A DNA stretch of 64,000 nt from an uncultured Flavobacteriaceae bacterium. GTDB lineage: Bacteria; Bacteroidota; Bacteroidia; Flavobacteriales; Flavobacteriaceae. The position numbers and the translations under genes are program-made. The notes under the pieces were generated by a model. That model was given only the letters and a program-made list of their open reading frames with translations, was not told the origin of the DNA and searched no databases. Of this stretch, positions 53,982-62,914 are shown in pieces. Numbering within the stretch: the first letter of the stretch is position 1; every line of letters begins with the position of its first letter. The DNA lies in the NCBI GenBank assembly GCA_938029725.1, contig CALHGE010000031.1, positions 124,001-188,000 on the forward strand, read 5' to 3'.

Positions 53982-55958
53982 ATGAAGTACCAGAACTCTA
54001 AGATTACCCATAAAACACAAGTTAGCCTTTACAAGCGGATGTTAAAGCCGCGAATGATTGAGGAAAAGATGCTTATTTTATTGCGCCAGGGAAAGATTTC
54101 AAAATGGTTTAGCGGTATTGGCCAGGAGGCCATTTCAGTGGGAGTGACCAGTGCTATGCAAAAAGAGGAGTACATTCTACCCATGCATAGAAACCTTGGT
54201 GTTTTTACCACACGAGACATTCCTTTATATCGACTTTTTGCCCAATGGCAAGGAAAATCGAGTGGATTTACAAAGGGGCGAGACCGCAGTTTTCATTTTG
54301 GTGCGCAGGAGTTTAATATCGTCGGAATGATTTCACATTTAGGGCCACAATTGGGTGTTGCCGACGGCATTGCTTTGGCAAATGTATTAAAAAAACAAAA
54401 ACACGTTACTGCGGTATTTACTGGAGAAGGAGGTACTAGTGAGGGCGATTTTCATGAAGCATTGAATGTAGCGGCTGTGTGGAACCTTCCGGTTGTATTC
54501 TGTATTGAAAATAATGGCTACGGATTATCCACACCTACAGCAGAGCAATACAAATGTAAAGACTTAGTAGATAAGGGTATCGGCTACGGAATAGAATCTC
54601 ATATTATAGACGGAAATAACATTTTGGAAGTTTACGAAACGGTCGACAAGCTCTGTAAAAAGATGCGTGAAAATCCAGCGCCTGTGCTGCTAGAGTTTAA
54701 GACTTTTAGAATGCGAGGGCATGAAGAGGCAAGCGGTACAAAATATGTGCCGGCCGAGTTGCTTGAGGAGTGGGCAAAGAAAGATCCTATTGCGAATTAT
54801 GAAAAATTCTTGTTAGATGAGAAAATTCTCGATACCGCTAAAATAGAAGAGATTAGAAAAGGAATCGAGACCGAAATTATTGAGAATTTAAAACTAGCCT
54901 TTGATGAAAGTGAGGTTGAATTAGATAAAACTAAAGAGTTAAGTGAAGTTTATAAAAAATTTGATTATCAGCATTTTAAAGAAGGAAGTGTTGTAGAGAA
55001 TATTCGTTTAGTAGATGCCATTTCTAATGGATTGAAACAATCGATGCAGAAGTATGATAACCTTGTAATCATGGGGCAAGATGTTGCGGATTATGGAGGT
55101 GTTTTTAAAATCACAGATGGCTTTGTAGCTGCTTTCGGTAAAGAGCGTGTTCGTAACACTCCCATTTGCGAGTCTGCTATTGTTTCCGCTGCAATGGGAC
55201 TTTCTATTAACGGTATGAAAGCTGTTATGGAAATGCAATTTGCAGATTTTGCAAGCTCAGGTTTTAACCCGATTGTAAATTATTTAGCGAAGTCACATTA
55301 TAGATGGGGAGAAAAAGCAGATGTGGTTATTCGCATGCCTTGCGGCGGCGGCGTAGGTGCAGGCCCATTTCATTCACAGACCAATGAAGCTTGGTTTACG
55401 AAAACCCCAGGTTTAAAGGTGGTTTATCCAGCATTTCCTGTAGATGCAAAAGGCTTATTGAATACCGCGATTAATGATCCTAATCCGGTATTGTTTTTTG
55501 AGCACAAAGGTTTGTATCGTAGTATTTATCAAAATGTACCCGCAGATTATTATACCATCCCATTGGGGCAAGCTAGTCTTTTAAAAGAGGGCAATGACAT
55601 TAGTATAGTTTCCTATGGCGCAGGGGTTCATTGGGCTTTAGAAACTTTAGAGAAGCATCCTGAGGTTAAGGCTGATTTACTTGATTTAAGAACGTTATCA
55701 CCTATGGACATGGATGCCATATATACCTCGGTAAAGAAAACAGGCAAACTTATCATATTACAAGAAGACAGCTTGTTTGGTGGTATTGCTAGCGATATTT
55801 CCGCTTTGGTTATGGAGCATTGTTTTGAAGCATTAGATGGACCTATAAAAAGAGTCGCTAGCATTGAAACGCCGATTCCATTTTCTACAGTTTTAGAAAA
55901 GAACTACCTGCCTAAAGATAGGTTCGCCGAAGAACTTCTCAATTTACTGGCCTACTAG
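53982..55958 (+). CDS. Fused alpha/beta 2-oxoacid dehydrogenase E1 with intact ThDP motif
   Basis: 658 residues: E1-alpha (about 10-325) fused to E1-beta (about 335-658). The alpha part has a normal ThDP motif: 'GEGGTSEGDFHEALNVAAVWNLPVVFCIENNGYG' (residues 148-181, given in parts), with GEG and NN. The beta part has 'IMGQDVADYGGVFKIT', 'RVRNTPICESAIVSAAMG' and 'VKKTGKLIILQEDSLFGG'. The branched-chain 2-oxoacid E1 is the most likely type, giving acyl starters for iso-branched fatty acids; pyruvate or acetoin types are less likely. No E2 or E3 gene is in view. It is distinct in length and motif from the fused E1 at 10453-12864. Confidence 0.92.
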   Translation: MKYQNSKITHKTQVSLYKRMLKPRMIEEKMLILLRQGKISKWFSGIGQEAISVGVTSAMQKEEYILPMHRNLGVFTTRDIPLYRLFAQWQGKSSGFTKGRDRSFHFGAQEFNIVGMISHLGPQLGVADGIALANVLKKQKHVTAVFTGEGGTSEGDFHEALNVAAVWNLPVVFCIENNGYGLSTPTAEQYKCKDLVDKGIGYGIESHIIDGNNILEVYETVDKLCKKMRENPAPVLLEFKTFRMRGHEEASGTKYVPAELLEEWAKKDPIANYEKFLLDEKILDTAKIEEIRKGIETEIIENLKLAFDESEVELDKTKELSEVYKKFDYQHFKEGSVVENIRLVDAISNGLKQSMQKYDNLVIMGQDVADYGGVFKITDGFVAAFGKERVRNTPICESAIVSAAMGLSINGMKAVMEMQFADFASSGFNPIVNYLAKSHYRWGEKADVVIRMPCGGGVGAGPFHSQTNEAWFTKTPGLKVVYPAFPVDAKGLLNTAINDPNPVLFFEHKGLYRSIYQNVPADYYTIPLGQASLLKEGNDISIVSYGAGVHWALETLEKHPEVKADLLDLRTLSPMDMDAIYTSVKKTGKLIILQEDSLFGGIASDISALVMEHCFEALDGPIKRVASIETPIPFSTVLEKNYLPKDRFAEELLNLLAY

Positions 55959-56100
55959 AATAGCAGTCAATTTTTGGTCTTACAGCTCCTAAAAAAGGCG
56001 CCTTAAACAAATGCTTTTTCATTAGATTATAAACAAGTTTACGCAATAGGTCATCCTTTTTGCTGTGCTGTACGTATATAGAAAAACCTAAATCTAGTAT

Positions 56101-56574
56101 ATGAAAAAATCAATTTTAGTAGTAGTTGTTTTTGCTCTAATGGCAAGTTCCTGTTCTGTTTCCAAAGCAGCACGAGCACAACGAAACCTTCTAAGTGGCT
56201 CCTGGACACTTAATAACATCAGTTATGAAAACAATGCAGGAAATTTCCAAGCTACTTTGTTTAACGATGCTAAGGATATCTGTTTTGAAGGTAGTGGTTG
56301 GTTTTTTAGAGATAACAACAGCACAGGTCGTTATACCATAAATCAATCTACACTTTGTACCGGTGGTGATCGCTTTATTCGATGGTCGGTAGTTGACGGA
56401 AGTCCCAATCAATTACAGTTCAAATTTATTGATGAGAAGTTGAAAGACATTTCAGGTGGAACCGGTTATAAGCTTAATATAACTGAATTGACGGTGCAAT
56501 CAATGACCTTAAAGTCAAATGTGACTGTGGAAGGCGAACGAATTACTGTTGTTTATGAATTTACAAAAAGATAG
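56101..56574 (+). CDS. Lipocalin-like lipoprotein
   Basis: 157 residues. The lipoprotein signal ends at ASSC (Cys18). The rest is a small barrel: 'LLSGSWTLNNISYENNAG', 'DAKDICFEGSGWFF', 'STLCTGGDRFIRWSVVDG' and 'LTVQSMTLKSNVTVEGERITVVYEF' (in parts). It carries two Cys after the signal. This is typical of the short lipocalin-like lipoproteins of Bacteroidota. It probably sits with the next OmpA gene as one transcript (4-base gap to its ATG). Confidence 0.8.
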   Translation: MKKSILVVVVFALMASSCSVSKAARAQRNLLSGSWTLNNISYENNAGNFQATLFNDAKDICFEGSGWFFRDNNSTGRYTINQSTLCTGGDRFIRWSVVDGSPNQLQFKFIDEKLKDISGGTGYKLNITELTVQSMTLKSNVTVEGERITVVYEFTKR

Positions 56575-56578
56575 AAAG

Positions 56579-57271
56579 ATGAAAAATATACATGTTAAGA
56601 GTATCACAGTTTTAATGACACTTACCCTGTTATTCAGTTGTAACGCATATAAAAATACCAATAAAACTCAAAGAGGTGCGGGAATAGGAGCTGCTGGTGG
56701 CGCTATAATTGGCGGAGTTCTTGGTAATAATGTTGGAAATGGAAACAATACAGCTTTAGGAGCAATTTTAGGCGCTGTAGTTGGTGGAGCAGCGGGTGGT
56801 TATATCGGTAATCGTATGGATCGTCAGGCCGAACGTATTGAAGAGGAAATACCTGGTGCTGTAGTAACGCGTGTCGGTGAAGGAATTAATGTAACTTTTA
56901 ATGAAGATGCAGGTGTTTATTTCGATACAAGTAAGTCTAACGTAAAAGGAACTTCGGCGACTACACTCGATAAATTAGCAGGTATTTTTAAAGAATATCC
57001 AAATTCTAACGTCTTGGTAGAAGGCCATACTGATAGTGCTGGTGCGGATGATTACAATATGCAATTATCTGAGCAGCGTGCGTTATCAGTAACCAAATAC
57101 CTTATTGCGCAAGGTATTGGAGGCGAGCGATTCACCACCAAATGGTATGGTGAGAATCAGCCGAAAGGAGATAATTTAACCAAAGAGGGTAAAGCAACCA
57201 ATAGAAGAGTTGAACTAGCTATTGTAGCAAGTGCTGAATTGAAAGACGAGGCTAAAAGAAAATCAAATTAA
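56579..57271 (+). CDS. OmpA-family lipoprotein with glycine-zipper segment
   Basis: 230 residues. The lipoprotein signal ends at LFSC. It is followed by a glycine-zipper region rich in Gly and Ala ('GAGIGAAGGAIIGGVLGNN', 'GAILGAVVGGAAGGYIGN') and a C-terminal OmpA domain ('YFDTSKSNVKGTSA', 'VLVEGHTDSAGADDYNM', 'YGENQPKGDNLTKEG', 'NRRVELAIVAS'). It anchors the outer membrane to peptidoglycan, and the zipper may oligomerise in the membrane. The start is ATG 56579; a longer ATG at 56549 would overlap the lipocalin gene. Confidence 0.9.
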   Translation: MKNIHVKSITVLMTLTLLFSCNAYKNTNKTQRGAGIGAAGGAIIGGVLGNNVGNGNNTALGAILGAVVGGAAGGYIGNRMDRQAERIEEEIPGAVVTRVGEGINVTFNEDAGVYFDTSKSNVKGTSATTLDKLAGIFKEYPNSNVLVEGHTDSAGADDYNMQLSEQRALSVTKYLIAQGIGGERFTTKWYGENQPKGDNLTKEGKATNRRVELAIVASAELKDEAKRKSN

Positions 57272-57296: not shown

Positions 57297-57329
57297 GAAA
57301 TCCCGACCATTAGGTTGGGATTTCTTTTT
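57297..57329 (+). terminator. Terminator hairpin between the OmpA gene and the type III PKS operon
   Basis: A 12-bp stem with one G-T pair (GAAATCCCGACC / GGTTGGGATTTC, loop ATTA) is followed by five T's. It ends only 26 bases before the next start codon. It either ends the OmpA transcript or acts in the leader of the operon. Confidence 0.85.
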
Positions 57330-57355: not shown

Positions 57356-58483
57356 GTGTACAACTATGACCTTATTATTGTTGGTGGAGGCCTTGCCGGC
57401 TTAACGGCCGCAATCCATTTATCTCAAGAAAATCATTCGGTTTTAGTCTTAGAAAAGAAACCCTATCCACATCACAAGGTTTGTGGGGAGTATGTATCGA
57501 ACGAGATTATTCCGTATTTAAATAAACTGGGGGTTCCTATGAGTTCTTCAGGTGCCGTACAGATAGATAATTTAGAGCTAAGTACAGCTTCTGGTGCATC
57601 TACTAAAACAAAATTAGCTTTAGGCGGTATCGGAATAAGCCGCTATGGCTTCGATAATCTATTGTATGAAAAGGCTATAGAAAGCGGAGTGGCGTTTGTT
57701 TTTGAATCTGTAACTGCTATAAATTATGATGATGATTCATTTCAAGTTACTACAGAAAGTAATACCTGCTATAGCGCAAGAATAACCATTGGTGCATACG
57801 GAAAGCGAAGTGCCCTAGATAAGGAGTTGCATCGCGATTTCATAAAACAGAAATCTGGTTGGCTAGGTGTAAAGGCACATTATCAGTTTGATGAATTTCC
57901 TGAAAATCAGGTGTCACTGCATAATTTCAAAGGTGGATACGGTGGTTTGTCTAAAACAGAATCCGGAGCGGTTAATTTTTGTTATTTAGCATCGTATAAA
58001 AGTTTTCAAAAGCAAAAGAACGTTCGTAACTTTAATGAAAAAATTGTTGCAAAGAATCCCTTTTTAAATGATTTCCTAGAAAAGGCAAATCCTATTTTCG
58101 AGGAGCCTATGAGCATTGCGCAAATTAGTTTTGATCAAAAAAAATCCGTAGAAAACCATATAATCATGTGTGGAGATACCGCAGGGCTCATACATCCACT
58201 ATGCGGTAATGGTATGGCAATGGCGATTCATTCAGCAAAAATAGCCGCTGAGCATATCGGCGAATATTTTAAAAACAAGGGTTTTGACCGGCAACAGCTA
58301 GAAAAAAATTACGAAAAAGAATGGAACAACACCTTCAAAAAACGCCTATGGATGGGCAGGCAATTGCAAACACTACTTCTTAATGAAGACTTGTCGAACT
58401 TGGCACTAAAATGCGTCACGACCTCGCCTGTTTTGCTCAGAAAACTAATTAAACAAACTCACGGGAAGCCGATTATATGTTAA
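57356..58483 (+). CDS. FAD-dependent oxidoreductase of the type III PKS cluster
   Basis: 375 residues, GTG start. The N-terminal FAD fold is 'YDLIIVGGGLAGLTAAIHL' with GGGLAG (about 10-15). The C-terminal FAD contact is 'IIMCGDTAGLIHPLCGNGMAMAIHSA' (269-294, in parts). It resembles geranylgeranyl-reductase- and PHBH-like flavoproteins that reduce or hydroxylate aromatic and polyene substrates. It is the first gene of the operon. In the known alkylresorcinol operon of Streptomyces, a flavoprotein oxidises the methylated type III PKS product, and a similar job is likely here. It overlaps the methyltransferase start by 7 bases. Confidence 0.88.
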   Translation: MYNYDLIIVGGGLAGLTAAIHLSQENHSVLVLEKKPYPHHKVCGEYVSNEIIPYLNKLGVPMSSSGAVQIDNLELSTASGASTKTKLALGGIGISRYGFDNLLYEKAIESGVAFVFESVTAINYDDDSFQVTTESNTCYSARITIGAYGKRSALDKELHRDFIKQKSGWLGVKAHYQFDEFPENQVSLHNFKGGYGGLSKTESGAVNFCYLASYKSFQKQKNVRNFNEKIVAKNPFLNDFLEKANPIFEEPMSIAQISFDQKKSVENHIIMCGDTAGLIHPLCGNGMAMAIHSAKIAAEHIGEYFKNKGFDRQQLEKNYEKEWNNTFKKRLWMGRQLQTLLLNEDLSNLALKCVTTSPVLLRKLIKQTHGKPIIC

Positions 58484-59196
58484 TAAACCTAAAAGAAAGA
58501 AGCAATCAGCCCGAATTGATGGATGATTTTCAGGAAGGTAGTGAAAGCCTTCAAATCGTCTTTGACGATATCAATCGGGTCAATACCATTTTGGGTGGAA
58601 GCAGTATTACCGTAAATGCTGTTGCAGATTTGATTAAGGCAAACCCTCAAGAAAGCTACACGATTGTTGATATGGGCTGTGGTGATGGGCATATGTTGCG
58701 TAAGGTAGCGGCCTATTGTAAAAGACATGCGATAGCTATTCAGCTAATAGGAATTGATTTGAATGCCGAAGCCTTAGAATTGGCAAAAGAAGCTTCGAAA
58801 GCTTATCCTGAAATTAAGTACCAACATCGCGATATTTTAGAACTGCAAGTCGCCGATTTGAATTGCGATATTGTTATTAATACGCTGACGATGCACCATT
58901 TCACAAACAAAGACTTACTCATTTTTCTTAAAAAATTCAATCAATTGGCGCGAATTGGGGTTGTTATCAATGACTTGCAAAGAAGTCGCTGGCCATACTA
59001 CCTTTTTAAAGCCTTTAGCCTTATTTTTATAAAAACAAAAACCGCTAAAATTGACGGATTGATTTCCATCAGTAAAGGTTTTGTAAAATCTGATTTAATA
59101 CAATATTCGAAGAGCTTGCCAGAGATTGAACACGATATTCAATGGAAATGGGCCTTTCGTTATGTATGGATTATGCAACCCAAGCGACTTACTTAG
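58477..59196 (+). CDS. SAM-dependent methyltransferase of the type III PKS cluster
   Basis: A 239-residue class I enzyme. The SAM-binding motif is 'TIVDMGCGDGHMLRKVA' (62-78), followed by 'GIDLNAEALELAKEA' and 'CDIVINTLTMHHFTNKDLLIFLKKF' (in parts, motif IV/V). The acceptor domain is not specific to any substrate by sight. Its place between the FAD oxidoreductase (7-base overlap) and the type III PKS (3-base gap) suggests O- or C-methylation of the polyketide product. Confidence 0.9.
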   Translation: MLINLKERSNQPELMDDFQEGSESLQIVFDDINRVNTILGGSSITVNAVADLIKANPQESYTIVDMGCGDGHMLRKVAAYCKRHAIAIQLIGIDLNAEALELAKEASKAYPEIKYQHRDILELQVADLNCDIVINTLTMHHFTNKDLLIFLKKFNQLARIGVVINDLQRSRWPYYLFKAFSLIFIKTKTAKIDGLISISKGFVKSDLIQYSKSLPEIEHDIQWKWAFRYVWIMQPKRLT

Positions 59197-59199
59197 ACT

Positions 59200-60255
59200 A
59201 TGAATGAGACACGAATTGTTACGGTTGCCAAAGAATTGCCTAAATATTGCCGTACAACTGATGATATTATCCCTTTTGTTGAATTATGGCTGGCTGATAA
59301 AGATGAACGTTTTCGCCGTAAAGTGGTAAAGATATTTGAAGGTGCTGCCGTTGACAAACGCTATGGAATTATGAATATTGAAGAGGTTTTTACGGCTACT
59401 TCTTTTGAAGAAAAGAACGCGATCTATGTTCGTGAGGTTAAAAAATTGGGGAAAACAGTTTTACAAAAAGCGTTGAAACAAAGTGGTTGGGAAGCGAACT
59501 CTCTAGACTATATTATTACCGTAAGTTGCACGGGAATAATGATACCTTCTTTGGATGCGTACCTGATCAATGATTTAGGTTTGAGGCAAGATGTTGTGCG
59601 CTTACCCGTTACAGAAATGGGTTGTGCAGCAGGCGTATCAGGATTAATTTACGCCCAGAATTTCTTGAAATCAAACCCCAATAAGCGCATTGCTTTGGTA
59701 GCCGTTGAGAGTCCGACTGCGACTTTTCAAATTAATGACCATTCTATGGCGAATATGGTAAGTGCTGCTATTTTTGGTGATGGTGCGGCTTGCGTATTGT
59801 TATCTTCAGAAGCTGACGCGGTGGGCCCTAAAATAATAGGTGAGGAGATGTATCATTTTAAGGATGCCACAGCAATGATGGGTTTTGATATGACTAATTA
59901 CGGATTGAAAATGATTCTAGACCCAGCTGTTCCAGAAACAATTGCTACTCATTTTCCAGATATTGTTCATCCTTTTTTAGAACGGAATGGAAGTTCTATT
60001 GATAAAGTTGACCATTTGATTTTCCACCCGGGCGGGCGAAAAATCGTGCAAACTGTTGAAGAACTATTTGGCAAATTAGGAAAGAATATAGATGACACCC
60101 GAGAAGTACTGCGCGAATACGGAAACATGAGTAGTGCTACTGTTTTATATGTGTTAGAGCGGTTTCTTGAAAAAGATATCAAAGAAGGAGAGCAGGGCTT
60201 GATACTTAGTTTCGGTCCAGGGTTTTCAGCCCAACGTGTTTTATTGGAATGGTAA
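59200..60255 (+). CDS. Type III polyketide synthase (chalcone synthase-like)
   Basis: 351 residues of the thiolase fold. The catalytic triad is Cys142 ('TEMGCAAGVSGL'), His276 ('LIFHPGGRK') and Asn309 ('EYGNMSSATV'). The gatekeeper region carries 'YHFKDATAMMGFDMTNYGLKM' (in parts). Such enzymes extend an acyl-CoA, or acyl-ACP in some phenolic lipid systems, with malonyl units and cyclise to resorcinols, phloroglucinols or pyrones. Nearby KS, dehydratase and ACP genes suggest a fatty-acyl starter made on the spot. The start lies 3 bases after the methyltransferase stop. Confidence 0.95.
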   Translation: MNETRIVTVAKELPKYCRTTDDIIPFVELWLADKDERFRRKVVKIFEGAAVDKRYGIMNIEEVFTATSFEEKNAIYVREVKKLGKTVLQKALKQSGWEANSLDYIITVSCTGIMIPSLDAYLINDLGLRQDVVRLPVTEMGCAAGVSGLIYAQNFLKSNPNKRIALVAVESPTATFQINDHSMANMVSAAIFGDGAACVLLSSEADAVGPKIIGEEMYHFKDATAMMGFDMTNYGLKMILDPAVPETIATHFPDIVHPFLERNGSSIDKVDHLIFHPGGRKIVQTVEELFGKLGKNIDDTREVLREYGNMSSATVLYVLERFLEKDIKEGEQGLILSFGPGFSAQRVLLEW

Positions 60256-60374
60256 ACAGCTGCTTATTTTTTTGAGAACCTCTGCAGCGAAATTTTTAGC
60301 CATGATGAAGCCTAACACGCTTTGATTGATCAATAACGGTACGTATAAGTCAAACAAGATATAAAAGCAGTGAT

Positions 60375-60827
60375 TTGAATTATAAAAACATCATACAAAA
60401 ACTACCCTACACGAAACCTTTTCTTTTCGTTGATGAGTTGGTACATGTCAATACGGAAGGGGCTAAAGGCAGCTATACATTTGATGAAAATTCGGATTTC
60501 TACAAGGGGCATTTTAAAAATAAGCCGGTCACTCCAGGGGTGCTACTTACGGAATGTTGTGCTCAAATAGGCCTAGTTGCTTTGGGTATTTATCTGCTCA
60601 ATAAAGAGGAGGATGTTGCTGTTAATACACTACAAATAGGCTTAAGTAGTTCTGAAATGGAATTCTATGAGCCCGTCTTTCCGAATGAAAAAGTAGTAGT
60701 CTGTTCTGAAAAAGTTTATTTCAGATTCCATAAGTTAAAATGTAAAGTGAAAATGCATAATAGCGCCGGTAAATTAGTGTGTAAAGGCACTATTTCTGGA
60801 ATGGTTAAATCAAACAAAAATGGATAA
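60375..60827 (+). CDS. FabZ-like hot-dog dehydratase of the type III PKS cluster
   Basis: 150 residues, TTG start (no ATG fits; the N-terminus aligns as 'YKNIIQKLPYTKPFLFVDEL', in parts). Active-site His46 in 'GHFKNKPVTPGVLLTECCAQ' and Glu60 in 'LTECCAQ' match 3-hydroxyacyl-ACP dehydratases. It would remove water from the beta-hydroxyacyl intermediate made with the cluster KS and ACP. A 119-base gap precedes it, unlike the tight spacing elsewhere in the operon. It overlaps the KS gene by 8 bases. Confidence 0.88.
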   Translation: MNYKNIIQKLPYTKPFLFVDELVHVNTEGAKGSYTFDENSDFYKGHFKNKPVTPGVLLTECCAQIGLVALGIYLLNKEEDVAVNTLQIGLSSSEMEFYEPVFPNEKVVVCSEKVYFRFHKLKCKVKMHNSAGKLVCKGTISGMVKSNKNG

Positions 60828-62106
60828 ACGCGTAGTAATTACAGGGCTTGGCGTTTGTGCCCCTAACGGAATAGGAATAAAAAATTTCACCATAGCTTTA
60901 CAAGAGGGTATTAGCGGAATTCGGTTTCACCAGCAGCTAAAAGATTTAAAATTTGGCTGTCAAATCGCAGCTGAACCTCAAGTTAATGAAGCGTTAATCA
61001 ATCAATATTTTACGCGCCTTCAATTGCGTGGCCTGAATGCTACCGGTATACGCTATGGTGTTATAGCAGGTAAAGATGCTTGGGCTGATGCGGGGCTTTC
61101 CATTTCAGAAAAAGATACGCCCGATTGGGATAGTGGTGTCATCTTCGGAACCGGAATTTTGGGTGTAGATAAATTTCGCGAATCTATTCATTTGGTAGAT
61201 GCTCAAAACGTGCGTCGCTTGGGTAGCACAACAGTTATTCAAACGATGGCAAGTGGTATTAGCGCTTACTTGGGAGGTATTTTTGGCTGTGGTAATCAGG
61301 TGACAACGAATTCCTCAGCTTGTACTACGGGCACAGAGGGTATTCTAATGGCGTATGACCGCATTGTTTCTGGAAAAGCAAAACGAATACTTACAGGAAG
61401 CTGCAGCGATAGCGGTCCTTATGTCTGGGGTGGTTTTGATGCGATGCGCATATTACCCAGACAATATAATGATAACCCGACAGCGGCAAGTCAACCCATG
61501 AGTGCTACTGCTGCAGGGTTTGTTCCTGGTAGTGGGGCAGGGGCTTTAGTATTAGAATCTTTGGAAAGTGCTTTAGCCCGGGGCGCGAAAATCTATGCCG
61601 AAGTTTTAGGTGGTGCGGTGAACAGTGGTGGGCAACGTGGAGAAGGCAGTATGACTGCTCCTAATAGTGTTGCAGTACAACGTTGTATTCGTGAAGCAGT
61701 TGCAAATTCAGGGATTCAAAAATCAGCAATAGATACCATTAATGGGCATTTGACTGCCACTACGAAAGACCCTACCGAAATTGAAAACTGGAGCAAGGCG
61801 TTGAACAGAACTGGCCCTGACTTTCCGTATGTAAATTCTTTTAAAGGGCATTTCGGACACTGCCTTGCAGCTTCTGGCAGTATTGAATCTGTAGGTGTAG
61901 TGCTTCAGTTTAAAGAGGGTCAGGTTTTTGGAAACCTAAACTGTTCAGCCATACACCCAGAGATATCAGCATTGGTAGACGAAACGAAAATTCCAAGAAA
62001 AACGATAGCACATTCCCCCAAAATAGTAGCAAAGGCAAGTTTTGGTTTTGGAGATGTAAATGCTTGTGTTATTTTTAAGTCCTATTCAGATGGAATGAAA
62101 AGTTGA
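60820..62106 (+). CDS. Divergent beta-ketoacyl-ACP synthase of the type III PKS cluster
   Basis: 428 residues, FabF-like. The catalytic set is Cys168 ('TTNSSACTTGTEG'), His310 ('INGHLTATTKDPTE'), and Lys342/His347 ('FKGHFGHCLAASGS'). These match KAS II chemistry but differ from FabF consensus in several places (SACTTG for ACSSS, GHLTAT for AHGTST), so it is a dedicated secondary-metabolism KS rather than housekeeping FabF. It overlaps the dehydratase and is followed by its ACP 59 bases later. Confidence 0.9.
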   Translation: MDKRVVITGLGVCAPNGIGIKNFTIALQEGISGIRFHQQLKDLKFGCQIAAEPQVNEALINQYFTRLQLRGLNATGIRYGVIAGKDAWADAGLSISEKDTPDWDSGVIFGTGILGVDKFRESIHLVDAQNVRRLGSTTVIQTMASGISAYLGGIFGCGNQVTTNSSACTTGTEGILMAYDRIVSGKAKRILTGSCSDSGPYVWGGFDAMRILPRQYNDNPTAASQPMSATAAGFVPGSGAGALVLESLESALARGAKIYAEVLGGAVNSGGQRGEGSMTAPNSVAVQRCIREAVANSGIQKSAIDTINGHLTATTKDPTEIENWSKALNRTGPDFPYVNSFKGHFGHCLAASGSIESVGVVLQFKEGQVFGNLNCSAIHPEISALVDETKIPRKTIAHSPKIVAKASFGFGDVNACVIFKSYSDGMKS

Positions 62107-62165
62107 AAATTTTAAAAAAAAAGTTTATAATACCCAATTAATCCCATACGATAACAAGCTATTTA

Positions 62166-62420
62166 ATGACGAAAGAAGAACGGTATCAAATATTACACAA
62201 CATTATAAAAATATACCTTCCTGAAGATGTGGCTTCGGAAGACATATCTGAAGAGAGCCACTTTATCAATGAATTGAATATCAATTCTGCTAACCTAGTA
62301 GACATCGTACTTGATGTTGAAGATGCTTTTGACATCCGTCTTGAAAATGAGGATATGGACCAAATGCAAACCGTGAAAGATGCGCTTCAAATTATAGATA
62401 CGAAGCTTTCGAAGGACTAA
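62166..62420 (+). CDS. Acyl carrier protein of the type III PKS cluster
   Basis: An 84-residue acidic helical protein. The phosphopantetheine serine is Ser41 in 'LNINSANLVDIVLDVED', where the usual DSL is NSA, followed by the typical helix II. Its position after the KS suggests it carries the growing acyl chain that primes the type III PKS. Confidence 0.9.
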   Translation: MTKEERYQILHNIIKIYLPEDVASEDISEESHFINELNINSANLVDIVLDVEDAFDIRLENEDMDQMQTVKDALQIIDTKLSKD

Positions 62421-62485: not shown

Positions 62486-62914
62486 ATGACTGAATTTATA
62501 GAATGGGCGAAGTCCAAATTAAAGGTCGATAAACGCCTTATTGCAATTTACTGTATCGTATATTTTTTATGGGGTATGTTAATGGACTGGTTTGGTGCGC
62601 AAATTGAAATTGCTAGATTCACCTATTGGTGGCAAGTGATTACCTGCTATATTTTATATATGGTACCGGTTTCACTTTTACTAAGAGACCTTCCTTTTCA
62701 TAGACAATATGCCTACGGATTGGTTGCTATGTGTCTTTTGGAGTTTGGAGGTTATGCTTTTGAAACTTCCTATGCTTATCCGAATAACTTGTTAGACCAA
62801 TTTTTTAACGAGCGCAATTTTGCTTTGGGAATGGCGCTGTTTTTTGCTTTGTACTTTCCTATCGGGAATTGGGCTGTGCAAAAGATATACGATTCTATTT
62901 TTGGAAAAAAATAG
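62486..62914 (+). CDS. Small integral membrane protein next to the type III PKS cluster
   Basis: 142 residues with four hydrophobic helices (about 19-37, 46-67, 77-91, 109-128). Sequence marks such as 'FLWGMLMDWFGAQIEI' and 'LEFGGYAFETSYAYPNNLLDQFF' (in parts) do not call up a family I can name. It is 65 bases after the ACP gene in the same direction. It may belong to the operon, in product transport or membrane placement, or be independent. Confidence 0.7.
   Translation: MTEFIEWAKSKLKVDKRLIAIYCIVYFLWGMLMDWFGAQIEIARFTYWWQVITCYILYMVPVSLLLRDLPFHRQYAYGLVAMCLLEFGGYAFETSYAYPNNLLDQFFNERNFALGMALFFALYFPIGNWAVQKIYDSIFGKK

What the first reader, a model, noticed from the sequence alone, without database searches (positions are those of the whole stretch)
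57356..62420. Self-contained type III PKS operon with its own ketosynthase, dehydratase and ACP
Seen: FAD oxidoreductase, methyltransferase, type III PKS, FabZ-like dehydratase, divergent KS and ACP in one direction with overlaps of 7 and 8 bases. Known: in Streptomyces srsABC a type III PKS, methyltransferase and flavoprotein make methylated, oxidised alkylresorcinols. Inference: the KS/dehydratase/ACP trio builds an unusual acyl-ACP starter, which the type III PKS takes directly or via CoA, giving a phenolic lipid or alkylpyrone-like compound not easily assigned to flexirubin or aryl polyene pathways. No ketoreductase or enoyl reductase is in the operon; they would be borrowed from primary metabolism, or the chain stays partly unsaturated.
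Basis: partly seen in the sequence, partly recalled or inferred. Interest (0 to 1): 0.85.

Follow-up and report, generated by a model that had tools for sequence, protein, structure and literature searches.

The report
Type III polyketide synthase acyl-cassette operon
A conserved gene set in marine and soil Bacteroidota appears to carry its own small fatty-acid-building kit next to an aromatic-ring-making enzyme, so it probably makes a lipid-tailed phenol or pyrone whose tail is built on the spot rather than borrowed.

Summary
FAD enzyme, methyltransferase (MT), type III PKS, FabZ-like dehydratase (DH), ketosynthase (KS) and ACP lie in one direction with 7- and 8-base overlaps. The unit is conserved: in one sample of 296 genomes of the order, the PKS is in 44 and the KS in 43. 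All 43 KS lie beside the PKS; the odd one out is a contig end. Of 27 more distant type III PKSs fetched from the phylum, 0 have the trio.

Three additions. (1) 66 of 77 and 23 of 42 relatives carry a FabL-like enoyl-ACP reductase (ER) between PKS and DH; the window lacks it and no orthologue was found in its genome. No second reductase (KR) was found in any operon. (2) Many relatives have a PPTase after the ACP. (3) The cassette occurs without this PKS in 4 of 37 KS-bearing phylum genomes, in 3 with glycosyltransferase genes.

Best reading: a modular acyl-ACP-building cassette feeds a type III PKS, whose product MT and FAD enzyme modify, giving a phenolic lipid or alkylpyrone. Genomic coupling is well supported; the chemistry is inferred.

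The parts
57356..58483 (+). FAD-dependent oxidoreductase of the geranylgeranyl-reductase/aromatic hydroxylase/halogenase fold (375 aa, GTG start)
   Evidence: Pfam FAD_binding_3, Lycopene_cycl, Trp_halogenase over cut-off; TIGR02032 121 bits, below cut-off 158.8; AlphaFold model pLDDT 87 nearest PltA, Bmp2, 3-hydroxybenzoate 6-hydroxylase; a GG reductase-like protein at rank 18
58477..59196 (+). class I SAM methyltransferase (239 aa), overlaps the FAD gene by 7 bases
   Evidence: PF13649 55.6 bits; PRK06202 125 bits, below cut-off 243
59200..60255 (+). type III polyketide synthase (351 aa), Cys142-His276-Asn309
   Evidence: PF00195, PF02797; triad invariant in 127 of 127 rows; Foldseek nearest Pks11 and CylI
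60256..60374 (+). 119-bp gap where most relatives carry a FabL-like enoyl reductase gene; no remnant detected
   Evidence: relatives; no tblastn match of 94 reductase proteins at E 0.01
60375..60827 (+). FabZ-like dehydratase (150 aa, TTG start), His46/Glu60
   Evidence: PF07977 55.8 bits; residues in 123 of 123 rows
60820..62106 (+). divergent FabF-like ketosynthase (428 aa), Cys168-His310-His347, Lys342; overlaps DH by 8 bases
   Evidence: PF00109/PF02801; residues in 119 of 119; 32% identical to the genome's other strong KS
62166..62420 (+). acyl carrier protein (84 aa), phosphopantetheine Ser in INSANL
   Evidence: PF00550 25 bits; Ser in 118 of 118
62486..62914 (+). ORF7, small hydrophobic (by eye, multi-helix membrane) protein, no known family; probable extra member of the unit in this lineage
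   Evidence: no Pfam match at 1e-3 and only DUF3149 at E 1.7, no NCBIfam match; 7 of 296 genomes, all 7 among the 44 with the PKS, 6 of 7 beside the operon; overlaps or abuts the ACP gene in several relatives
57297..57324 (+). terminator-like hairpin (12 pairs, T-rich tail) between the OmpA gene and the FAD gene, a likely upstream border
   Evidence: 7 found, 5.0 expected in shuffles, so weak

Best explanation
The operon encodes a type III PKS with its own discrete (type II style) acyl-ACP-building cassette. The dedicated KS extends a primer with malonyl units on the dedicated ACP. The host's FabG reduces the keto group (no KR in the operon), the operon's DH dehydrates, and a FabL-like enoyl reductase reduces in most relatives; in the window's lineage that step must come from the host's reductase or be skipped. 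The resulting acyl chain passes from ACP (directly, or through CoA) to the type III PKS, which adds malonyl-CoA units and cyclises to an alkylresorcinol or alkylpyrone; the methyltransferase and the FAD enzyme then methylate and oxidise the ring. Shown: the genes, intact catalytic residues, strict co-occurrence of the cassette with the PKS in the order sampled, the ER's place in relatives and absence here, and the existence of PKS-free versions of the cassette. Inferred: every reaction, the ACP hand-off and the product class (I put resorcinol over pyrone at about 60:40).
For: PKS in 44 and KS in 43 of the same 296 genomes, all 43 KS beside the PKS; in the 42 fetched, same strand and gap at most 4142 bases. 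ER in 24 of 296, all 24 within the 44 PKS genomes and beside the PKS. Pairwise protein distances of PKS and KS correlate at r = 0.85 over 80 loci (not corrected for kinship of the organisms). Distant type III PKSs lack the trio: 0 of 27 fetched of 73 found. The ER's Ser, Tyr and Lys columns are invariant in 94 of 94, the lysine seven residues after the tyrosine; best PDB match is the enoyl-ACP reductase 3oic, best NCBIfam model FabL. A PPTase gene lies within 700 bases after the ACP in 29 of 42 census loci and 10 of 73 genome-contig loci with an ACP. PKS model nearest Pks11 and CylI. Precedents read: Gcs/SCO7671 and ArsB/ArsC accept acyl-ACP (PMC6274091, passages); MT-oxidoreductase-PKS operons of planctomycetes and hidABC make alkylresorcinols (PMC10896814, abstract, passages and section 13).
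Against: The PKS clade is separated by a long stem (1.3 changes per column) from all other type III PKSs in my tree, and the four Bacteroidota PKSs with MT and FAD neighbours fall elsewhere, so product class cannot be read from kinship. No characterised alkylresorcinol synthase other than CylI was in that tree. No second SDR lies in the operon in 122 of 122 loci checked, so the cycle depends on an unproved borrowed FabG. The ER is absent in 20 of 44 census genomes, so it is not essential. The cassette has PKS-free cousins (4 of 37). The place of the usual DG motif of flavin hydroxylases reads Tyr-Gly or Phe-Gly (motif recalled; sequences), so hydroxylase action is uncertain.
Confidence: 0.6

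Rival explanations
1. The trio builds a non-fatty starter, as the KR-less ACP/dehydratase/KS trios of coronafacic acid (Cfa1-3, recalled) and cispentacin (AmcB/E/F) build a cyclic acid; the type III PKS then extends that unusual unit.
For: No second SDR (KR) in 122 of 122 operons checked; NCBIfam lists weak matches to AmcE, AmcF and AmcB.
Against: Those matches are far weaker than the ones to fatty-acid enzymes: AmcE 20 v FabZ 62 bits, AmcF 94 v FabF 250, AmcB 19.5 v ACP 47. An enoyl reductase in most relatives fits a normal elongation cycle. FabZ His/Glu are intact.
Confidence: 0.15
2. The type III PKS draws ordinary acyl-CoA or acyl-ACP from primary fatty acid synthesis, and the cassette acts later or elsewhere, e.g. 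building a second acyl chain that esterifies the phenol.
For: hid and planctomycete three-gene operons make alkylresorcinols, with no cassette mentioned in what I read (PMC10896814). The cassette also occurs without this PKS, beside GT2 genes and in one case a GNAT-like gene.
Against: Apart from the ER, no further gene recurs between FAD and ACP in the loci listed, so no obvious acyltransferase; the KS was not found without the PKS in the 296 genomes of the order sampled.
Confidence: 0.17
3. Malonyl-only enzyme (DpgA or phloroglucinol type), the KS/DH/ACP being an unrelated neighbour.
For: DpgA is the best NCBIfam model for the PKS.
Against: 174 bits against a cut-off of 425; none of the 9 window proteins scanned is a crotonase-type Dpg partner (partner type recalled); strict linkage; nearest structures Pks11 and CylI.
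Confidence: 0.04

Closest known systems
hidABC (hierridin, cyanobacteria) and the planctomycete methyltransferase-oxidoreductase-type III PKS operon (PMC10896814)
   Same: [quoted passage not shown] product a tailored alkylresorcinol.
   Different: Order there is MT-oxidoreductase-PKS, here FAD-MT-PKS; no KS/DH/ER/ACP cassette is mentioned there (the words 'ketoacyl' and 'dehydratase' do not occur in the main text). HidC itself was not compared.
Streptomyces srsABC (recalled)
   Same: Type III PKS with methyltransferase and flavoprotein.
   Different: No dedicated KS/DH/ACP (recalled); sequences not compared here.
Azotobacter ArsA with ArsB/ArsC (PMC6274091, passages)
   Same: A dedicated acyl-building synthase hands an ACP-bound chain to a type III PKS.
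   Different: There a fatty acid synthase with an ACP domain (type I, per the title of its reference in PMC3098273); here discrete proteins plus host FabG.
Cylindrocyclophane CylI (PDB 8ysp, 8yst, 8yw7)
   Same: Closest solved type III PKS fold together with Pks11; PDB titles describe acyl-SNAC and beta-ketoacyl-SNAC substrates and a resorcinol product.
   Different: About 25% identity; the recalled feeder is a type I PKS line.
Aryl polyene and flexirubin clusters (recalled)
   Same: Discrete KS, dehydratase and ACP.
   Different: No KR in the operon; the relatives' ER resembles FabL (168 bits) more than flexirubin FlxB (99.5 bits); only two strong KS hits in the window's genome, this KS and one other.

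Membership tests
Type III polyketide synthase | Chalcone/stilbene synthase domains over cut-off | tested here: met
   PF00195 89 bits, PF02797 75 bits
Type III polyketide synthase | Cys-His-Asn triad | tested here: met
   127 of 127 rows
Three-gene alkylresorcinol operon (hid/srs kind) | Type III PKS with methyltransferase and FAD oxidoreductase, co-directional | tested here: met
   MT and FAD in 43 of 43 census loci
Three-gene alkylresorcinol operon (hid/srs kind) | PKS of the HidC/SrsA clades | not tested
   No HidC or SrsA sequence was at hand; in my tree the clade stands alone on a long stem
Three-gene alkylresorcinol operon (hid/srs kind) | Product a tailored alkylresorcinol | not testable with these tools
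   needs chemistry
DpgA (3,5-dihydroxyphenylacetyl-CoA synthase) | NCBIfam NF042429 cut-off 425 bits | tested here: not met
   174.5 bits
Ars-type FAS-fed type III PKS | Type I multidomain FAS beside the PKS | tested here: not met
   discrete KS, DH, ACP
Ars-type FAS-fed type III PKS | Direct acyl transfer from ACP to the PKS | not testable with these tools
   needs assay
Aryl polyene / flexirubin cluster | Ketoreductase and paired KS in the cluster (recalled) | tested here: not met
   one KS and no SDR in the window's operon; no operon with more than one SDR in 122 loci; own-genome PF00109 search gives two strong hits and two weak ones
FabL enoyl-ACP reductase (relatives' SDR) | NCBIfam FabL cut-off 328 bits | tested here: not met
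   160.7-167.8 bits for 3 proteins, best of all NCBIfam models
FabL enoyl-ACP reductase (relatives' SDR) | Tyr-x6-Lys catalytic spacing of enoyl reductases (motif recalled) | tested here: met
   Tyr and Lys columns invariant in 94 of 94; a narrower regular expression (Val and Ser fixed inside) matched 90 of 94

The most novel reading that the evidence does not exclude
A plug-in, discrete acyl-ACP synthase cassette (ER-DH-KS-ACP, often with its own PPTase) has been coupled in Bacteroidota evolution to different chain-consuming enzymes: a type III PKS in this operon, and glycosyltransferase and GNAT-like genes in PKS-free cousins. With the PKS it makes a dedicated-chain phenolic lipid by direct ACP hand-off, and ORF7 is a membrane partner for the product. 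That would be the first type III PKS with its own type II chain builder that I know of.
Probability: 0.45. Interest if true: 0.7.

Novelty: new variant of a known kind. Interest (0 to 1): 0.55.

Why it matters
Type III PKSs are usually regarded as free-standing enzymes that take acyl-CoA. A conserved operon that couples one to a discrete chain-building cassette would give a clean test of ACP-to-type-III transfer. Natural ER-plus and ER-minus relatives offer a ready-made comparison of chain saturation. It would also assign part of a common but uncharacterised class of Flavobacteriaceae clusters: type III PKS clusters are 9% of predicted clusters in one survey of that family (PMC7440613, passages), though that figure is for all type III PKSs, not this operon alone. 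The PKS was found in 44 of 296 sampled genomes of the order.

Tried and rejected
DpgA/phloroglucinol reading: disfavoured on score and linkage. Trio as chance neighbours: rejected. ER moved elsewhere in ER-less genomes: searched 21 such genomes plus 3 positive controls at E <= 1e-20; the 3 controls matched at 61-64% identity, 0 of 21 gave an orthologue, 6 of 21 gave a 31-33% SDR; own genome best 32% (assembly 92% complete). ER remnant in the PKS-DH gaps of the window and 14 relatives: nothing beyond matches of 9 and 12 residues in two of them. Reading ring type from the ArsB Trp281/ArsC Gly284 switch: no ArsC alignment was shown and the primary paper is not held, so left open; a Phe in the MGFD motif is invariant in 127 of 127 rows, meaning unknown. 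Plasmid collection as a source of named relatives: 101 records with a match at E <= 1e-30, all under 60% identity. Of four regions opened, two (Rhizobium, Stenotrophomonas) show an annotated ICMT methyltransferase after the PKS, one (Marinovum) hypothetical proteins, one (Streptomyces) no annotation; no KS or ACP is annotated beside the PKS in the three annotated ones, whose gene tables are incomplete. NCBIfam on three FAD/MT proteins beside distant PKSs put them in the same families as the window's FAD and MT, below cut-off. Literature: ten searches listed no paper whose title or abstract start describes this operon; most papers were seen only as listings and the library lacks most subscription journals, so this is weak evidence of absence. 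Promoter scan gave no more than chance. The genome-contig scan kept only the best 80 of 95 relatives and the census stayed within the phylum, so other phyla are not excluded.
Full report
What is there. The six genes exist exactly as described, on one strand, with overlaps of 7 and 8 bases, and each falls in the stated Pfam family over its cut-off. Active-site residues of PKS, DH, KS and ACP are intact and invariant in all rows collected by similarity. The KS is one of only two strong ketosynthase hits in the held genome, and is 32% identical to the other. The assembly is 92% complete, so absences are provisional.

It is a conserved unit. A scan of the genome-contig collection returned 80 loci (best 80 of 95), mostly Flavobacteriaceae by record title, with a Spirosoma and a Sphingobacterium MAG. 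The order FAD-MT-PKS-(ER)-DH-KS-ACP recurs. Of the 80, 7 lack a KS and 7 lack an ACP in my sets, whose thresholds drop partial genes. Six of the 7 KS-lacking loci are contigs that end in or before the KS. The seventh, L077 (Lacinutrix neustonica), has FAD, MT, DH and KS reading frames split, through decay or assembly error.

Census. In one sample of 296 genomes of the order, the PKS is found in 44 and the KS in 43 at E <= 1e-60. The one genome with PKS alone (G091, 66% complete) has the PKS on a 3.9-kb contig that ends before DH. I fetched 43 of the 44 loci (all but the window's own): 42 have KS, DH and ACP, all 42 KS on the PKS strand, PKS-KS gap median 1227 and maximum 4142 bases; MT and FAD are in 43 of 43. 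The reductase is found in 24 of the same 296, each time in a PKS genome and beside the PKS.

Outgroups. In 395 genomes of the phylum the PKS query matches 106 at E <= 1e-40, with a clean break: 33 at 67% identity or more and 73 at 38% or less. Of the 73 I fetched 27; by the family HMMs none has KS, DH or ACP nearby (some stretches are cut by contig ends), and 4 have both MT and FAD, the FAD score being weak (33 and 37 bits) in two of these. The PKSs of the family form one clade on a long stem; the MT/FAD-linked distant PKSs are elsewhere. So linkage to MT and FAD is shared with some other type III PKSs, while linkage to the cassette was seen only in this clade. The three other distant PKSs whose neighbours I identified (L141, L143, L150) sit beside an ICMT-type methyltransferase instead.

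The missing enzyme. In most relatives a 260-aa SDR lies between PKS and DH: 66 of 77 genome-contig loci with PKS and DH, 23 of 42 census loci; a stricter position check gives 66 of 77 and 22 of 42. Its best NCBIfam model is FabL (168 bits, under the cut-off of 328) and its best PDB match is the enoyl reductase 3oic. Ser, Tyr and Lys are invariant in 94 of 94. It is absent in the window and in close kin L003, L004 and L006, while L005, 94% identical in the PKS, has it. On the PKS tree the state needs at least 9 changes; all five rows of the clade drawn deepest have it (midpoint root), which suggests repeated loss, though the count cannot tell gain from loss. No operon span held more than one SDR-like ORF in 122 loci checked, so no ketoreductase accompanies it.

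Cassette without PKS. In 385 phylum genomes the KS matches 37 at E <= 1e-55: 33 at 60% identity or more, in the same genomes that have the operon, and 4 at 45-52% without the operon; two of the 4 (G384, G365) also have a distant type III PKS on another contig. Those 4 (L173-L176) keep DH-KS-ACP; L173 and L174 also have the ER, L173 the PPTase. L174, L175 and L176 have a GT2 glycosyltransferase in the same gene run, and L175 a GNAT-like protein. In the KS tree the 4 fall on one side of one branch (support 88/66, weak). I read this as a module that supplies acyl-ACP to whichever enzyme it is paired with.

Mechanism. Discrete KS, DH, (ER) and ACP with borrowed FabG would make an acyl-ACP; a PPTase gene within 700 bases after the ACP in 29 of 42 census loci and 10 of 73 genome-contig loci suggests the ACP is truly used. 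Gcs/SCO7671 and ArsB/ArsC are type III PKSs known to accept acyl-ACP (PMC6274091, passages). The PKS model (pLDDT 79.5, 12-row alignment) is nearest Pks11 and CylI, 28% and 24% identical in the two top alignments. MT and FAD are as in tailored alkylresorcinol operons (PMC10896814); in that work co-expression of the Gimesia maris MT and oxidoreductase gave one extra, probably C-bound, methyl and the role of the oxidoreductase stayed open. The FAD enzyme's fold neighbours are halogenases, aromatic hydroxylases and a GG reductase-like protein, so its reaction is unsettled.

ORF7. A 142-aa hydrophobic protein follows the ACP. It is in 7 of 296 genomes, all with the PKS, 6 of 7 adjacent and one about 100 kb away; 41 of the loci held contain it, on the ACP strand in 40 of 40 with an ACP, and in several it overlaps the ACP gene. 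It is probably a lineage-specific addition to the operon.

Verdict. Real, conserved, not found described in the papers I could search, and a new variant of the known type III PKS phenolic lipid operons. The coupling is strong; the chemistry is inference.

Noticed in passing
window 62486-62914: ORF7: hydrophobic protein of no known family, found only in genomes that have the PKS (7 of 7 in 296), adjacent in 6 of 7.
   Followed up: partly
L077 8100-13909: Lacinutrix neustonica complete genome: FAD, MT, DH and KS reading frames are each split while PKS and ACP are open; decay or sequencing error.
   Followed up: no
L173 (6276-9786 and 10041-16001): ER-DH-KS-ACP-PPTase cassette without type III PKS beside it, with a divergent gene run that includes a KSIII-like protein (PF08541) and a 300-aa protein of no Pfam family.
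   Followed up: partly
L174 7597-12746; L175 5825-10189; L176 6106-10356: DH-KS-ACP cassettes in gene runs with GT2 glycosyltransferases and (L175) a GNAT-like protein: possibly an acyl-glycolipid pathway.
   Followed up: partly
window 53982-57271: A fused 2-oxoacid dehydrogenase E1 (recognised by eye), a lipocalin-like gene and an OmpA/glycine-zipper gene lie upstream; relatives of each occur in 61-64 of the 82 loci, but they are missing from many of the more distant operons, so probably chromosomal context only.
   Followed up: partly
L141 4339-9674 and kin L139-L145: Other Bacteroidota type III PKSs: L141 sits with an ICMT methyltransferase, a nitroreductase-family protein and a divergent 2-oxoacid dehydrogenase E2 gene; neighbours of similar size recur in L139, L140, L142, L144.
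   Followed up: no
L068 9421-12084: An 887-aa protein of no Pfam family sits between PKS and ER in an Aquimarina MAG.
   Followed up: no
L072 9761-10345; L130 between PKS and DH: ORFs of 194 and 174 aa occupy the ER position but show no similarity to the ER; replacement genes or spurious frames.
   Followed up: partly
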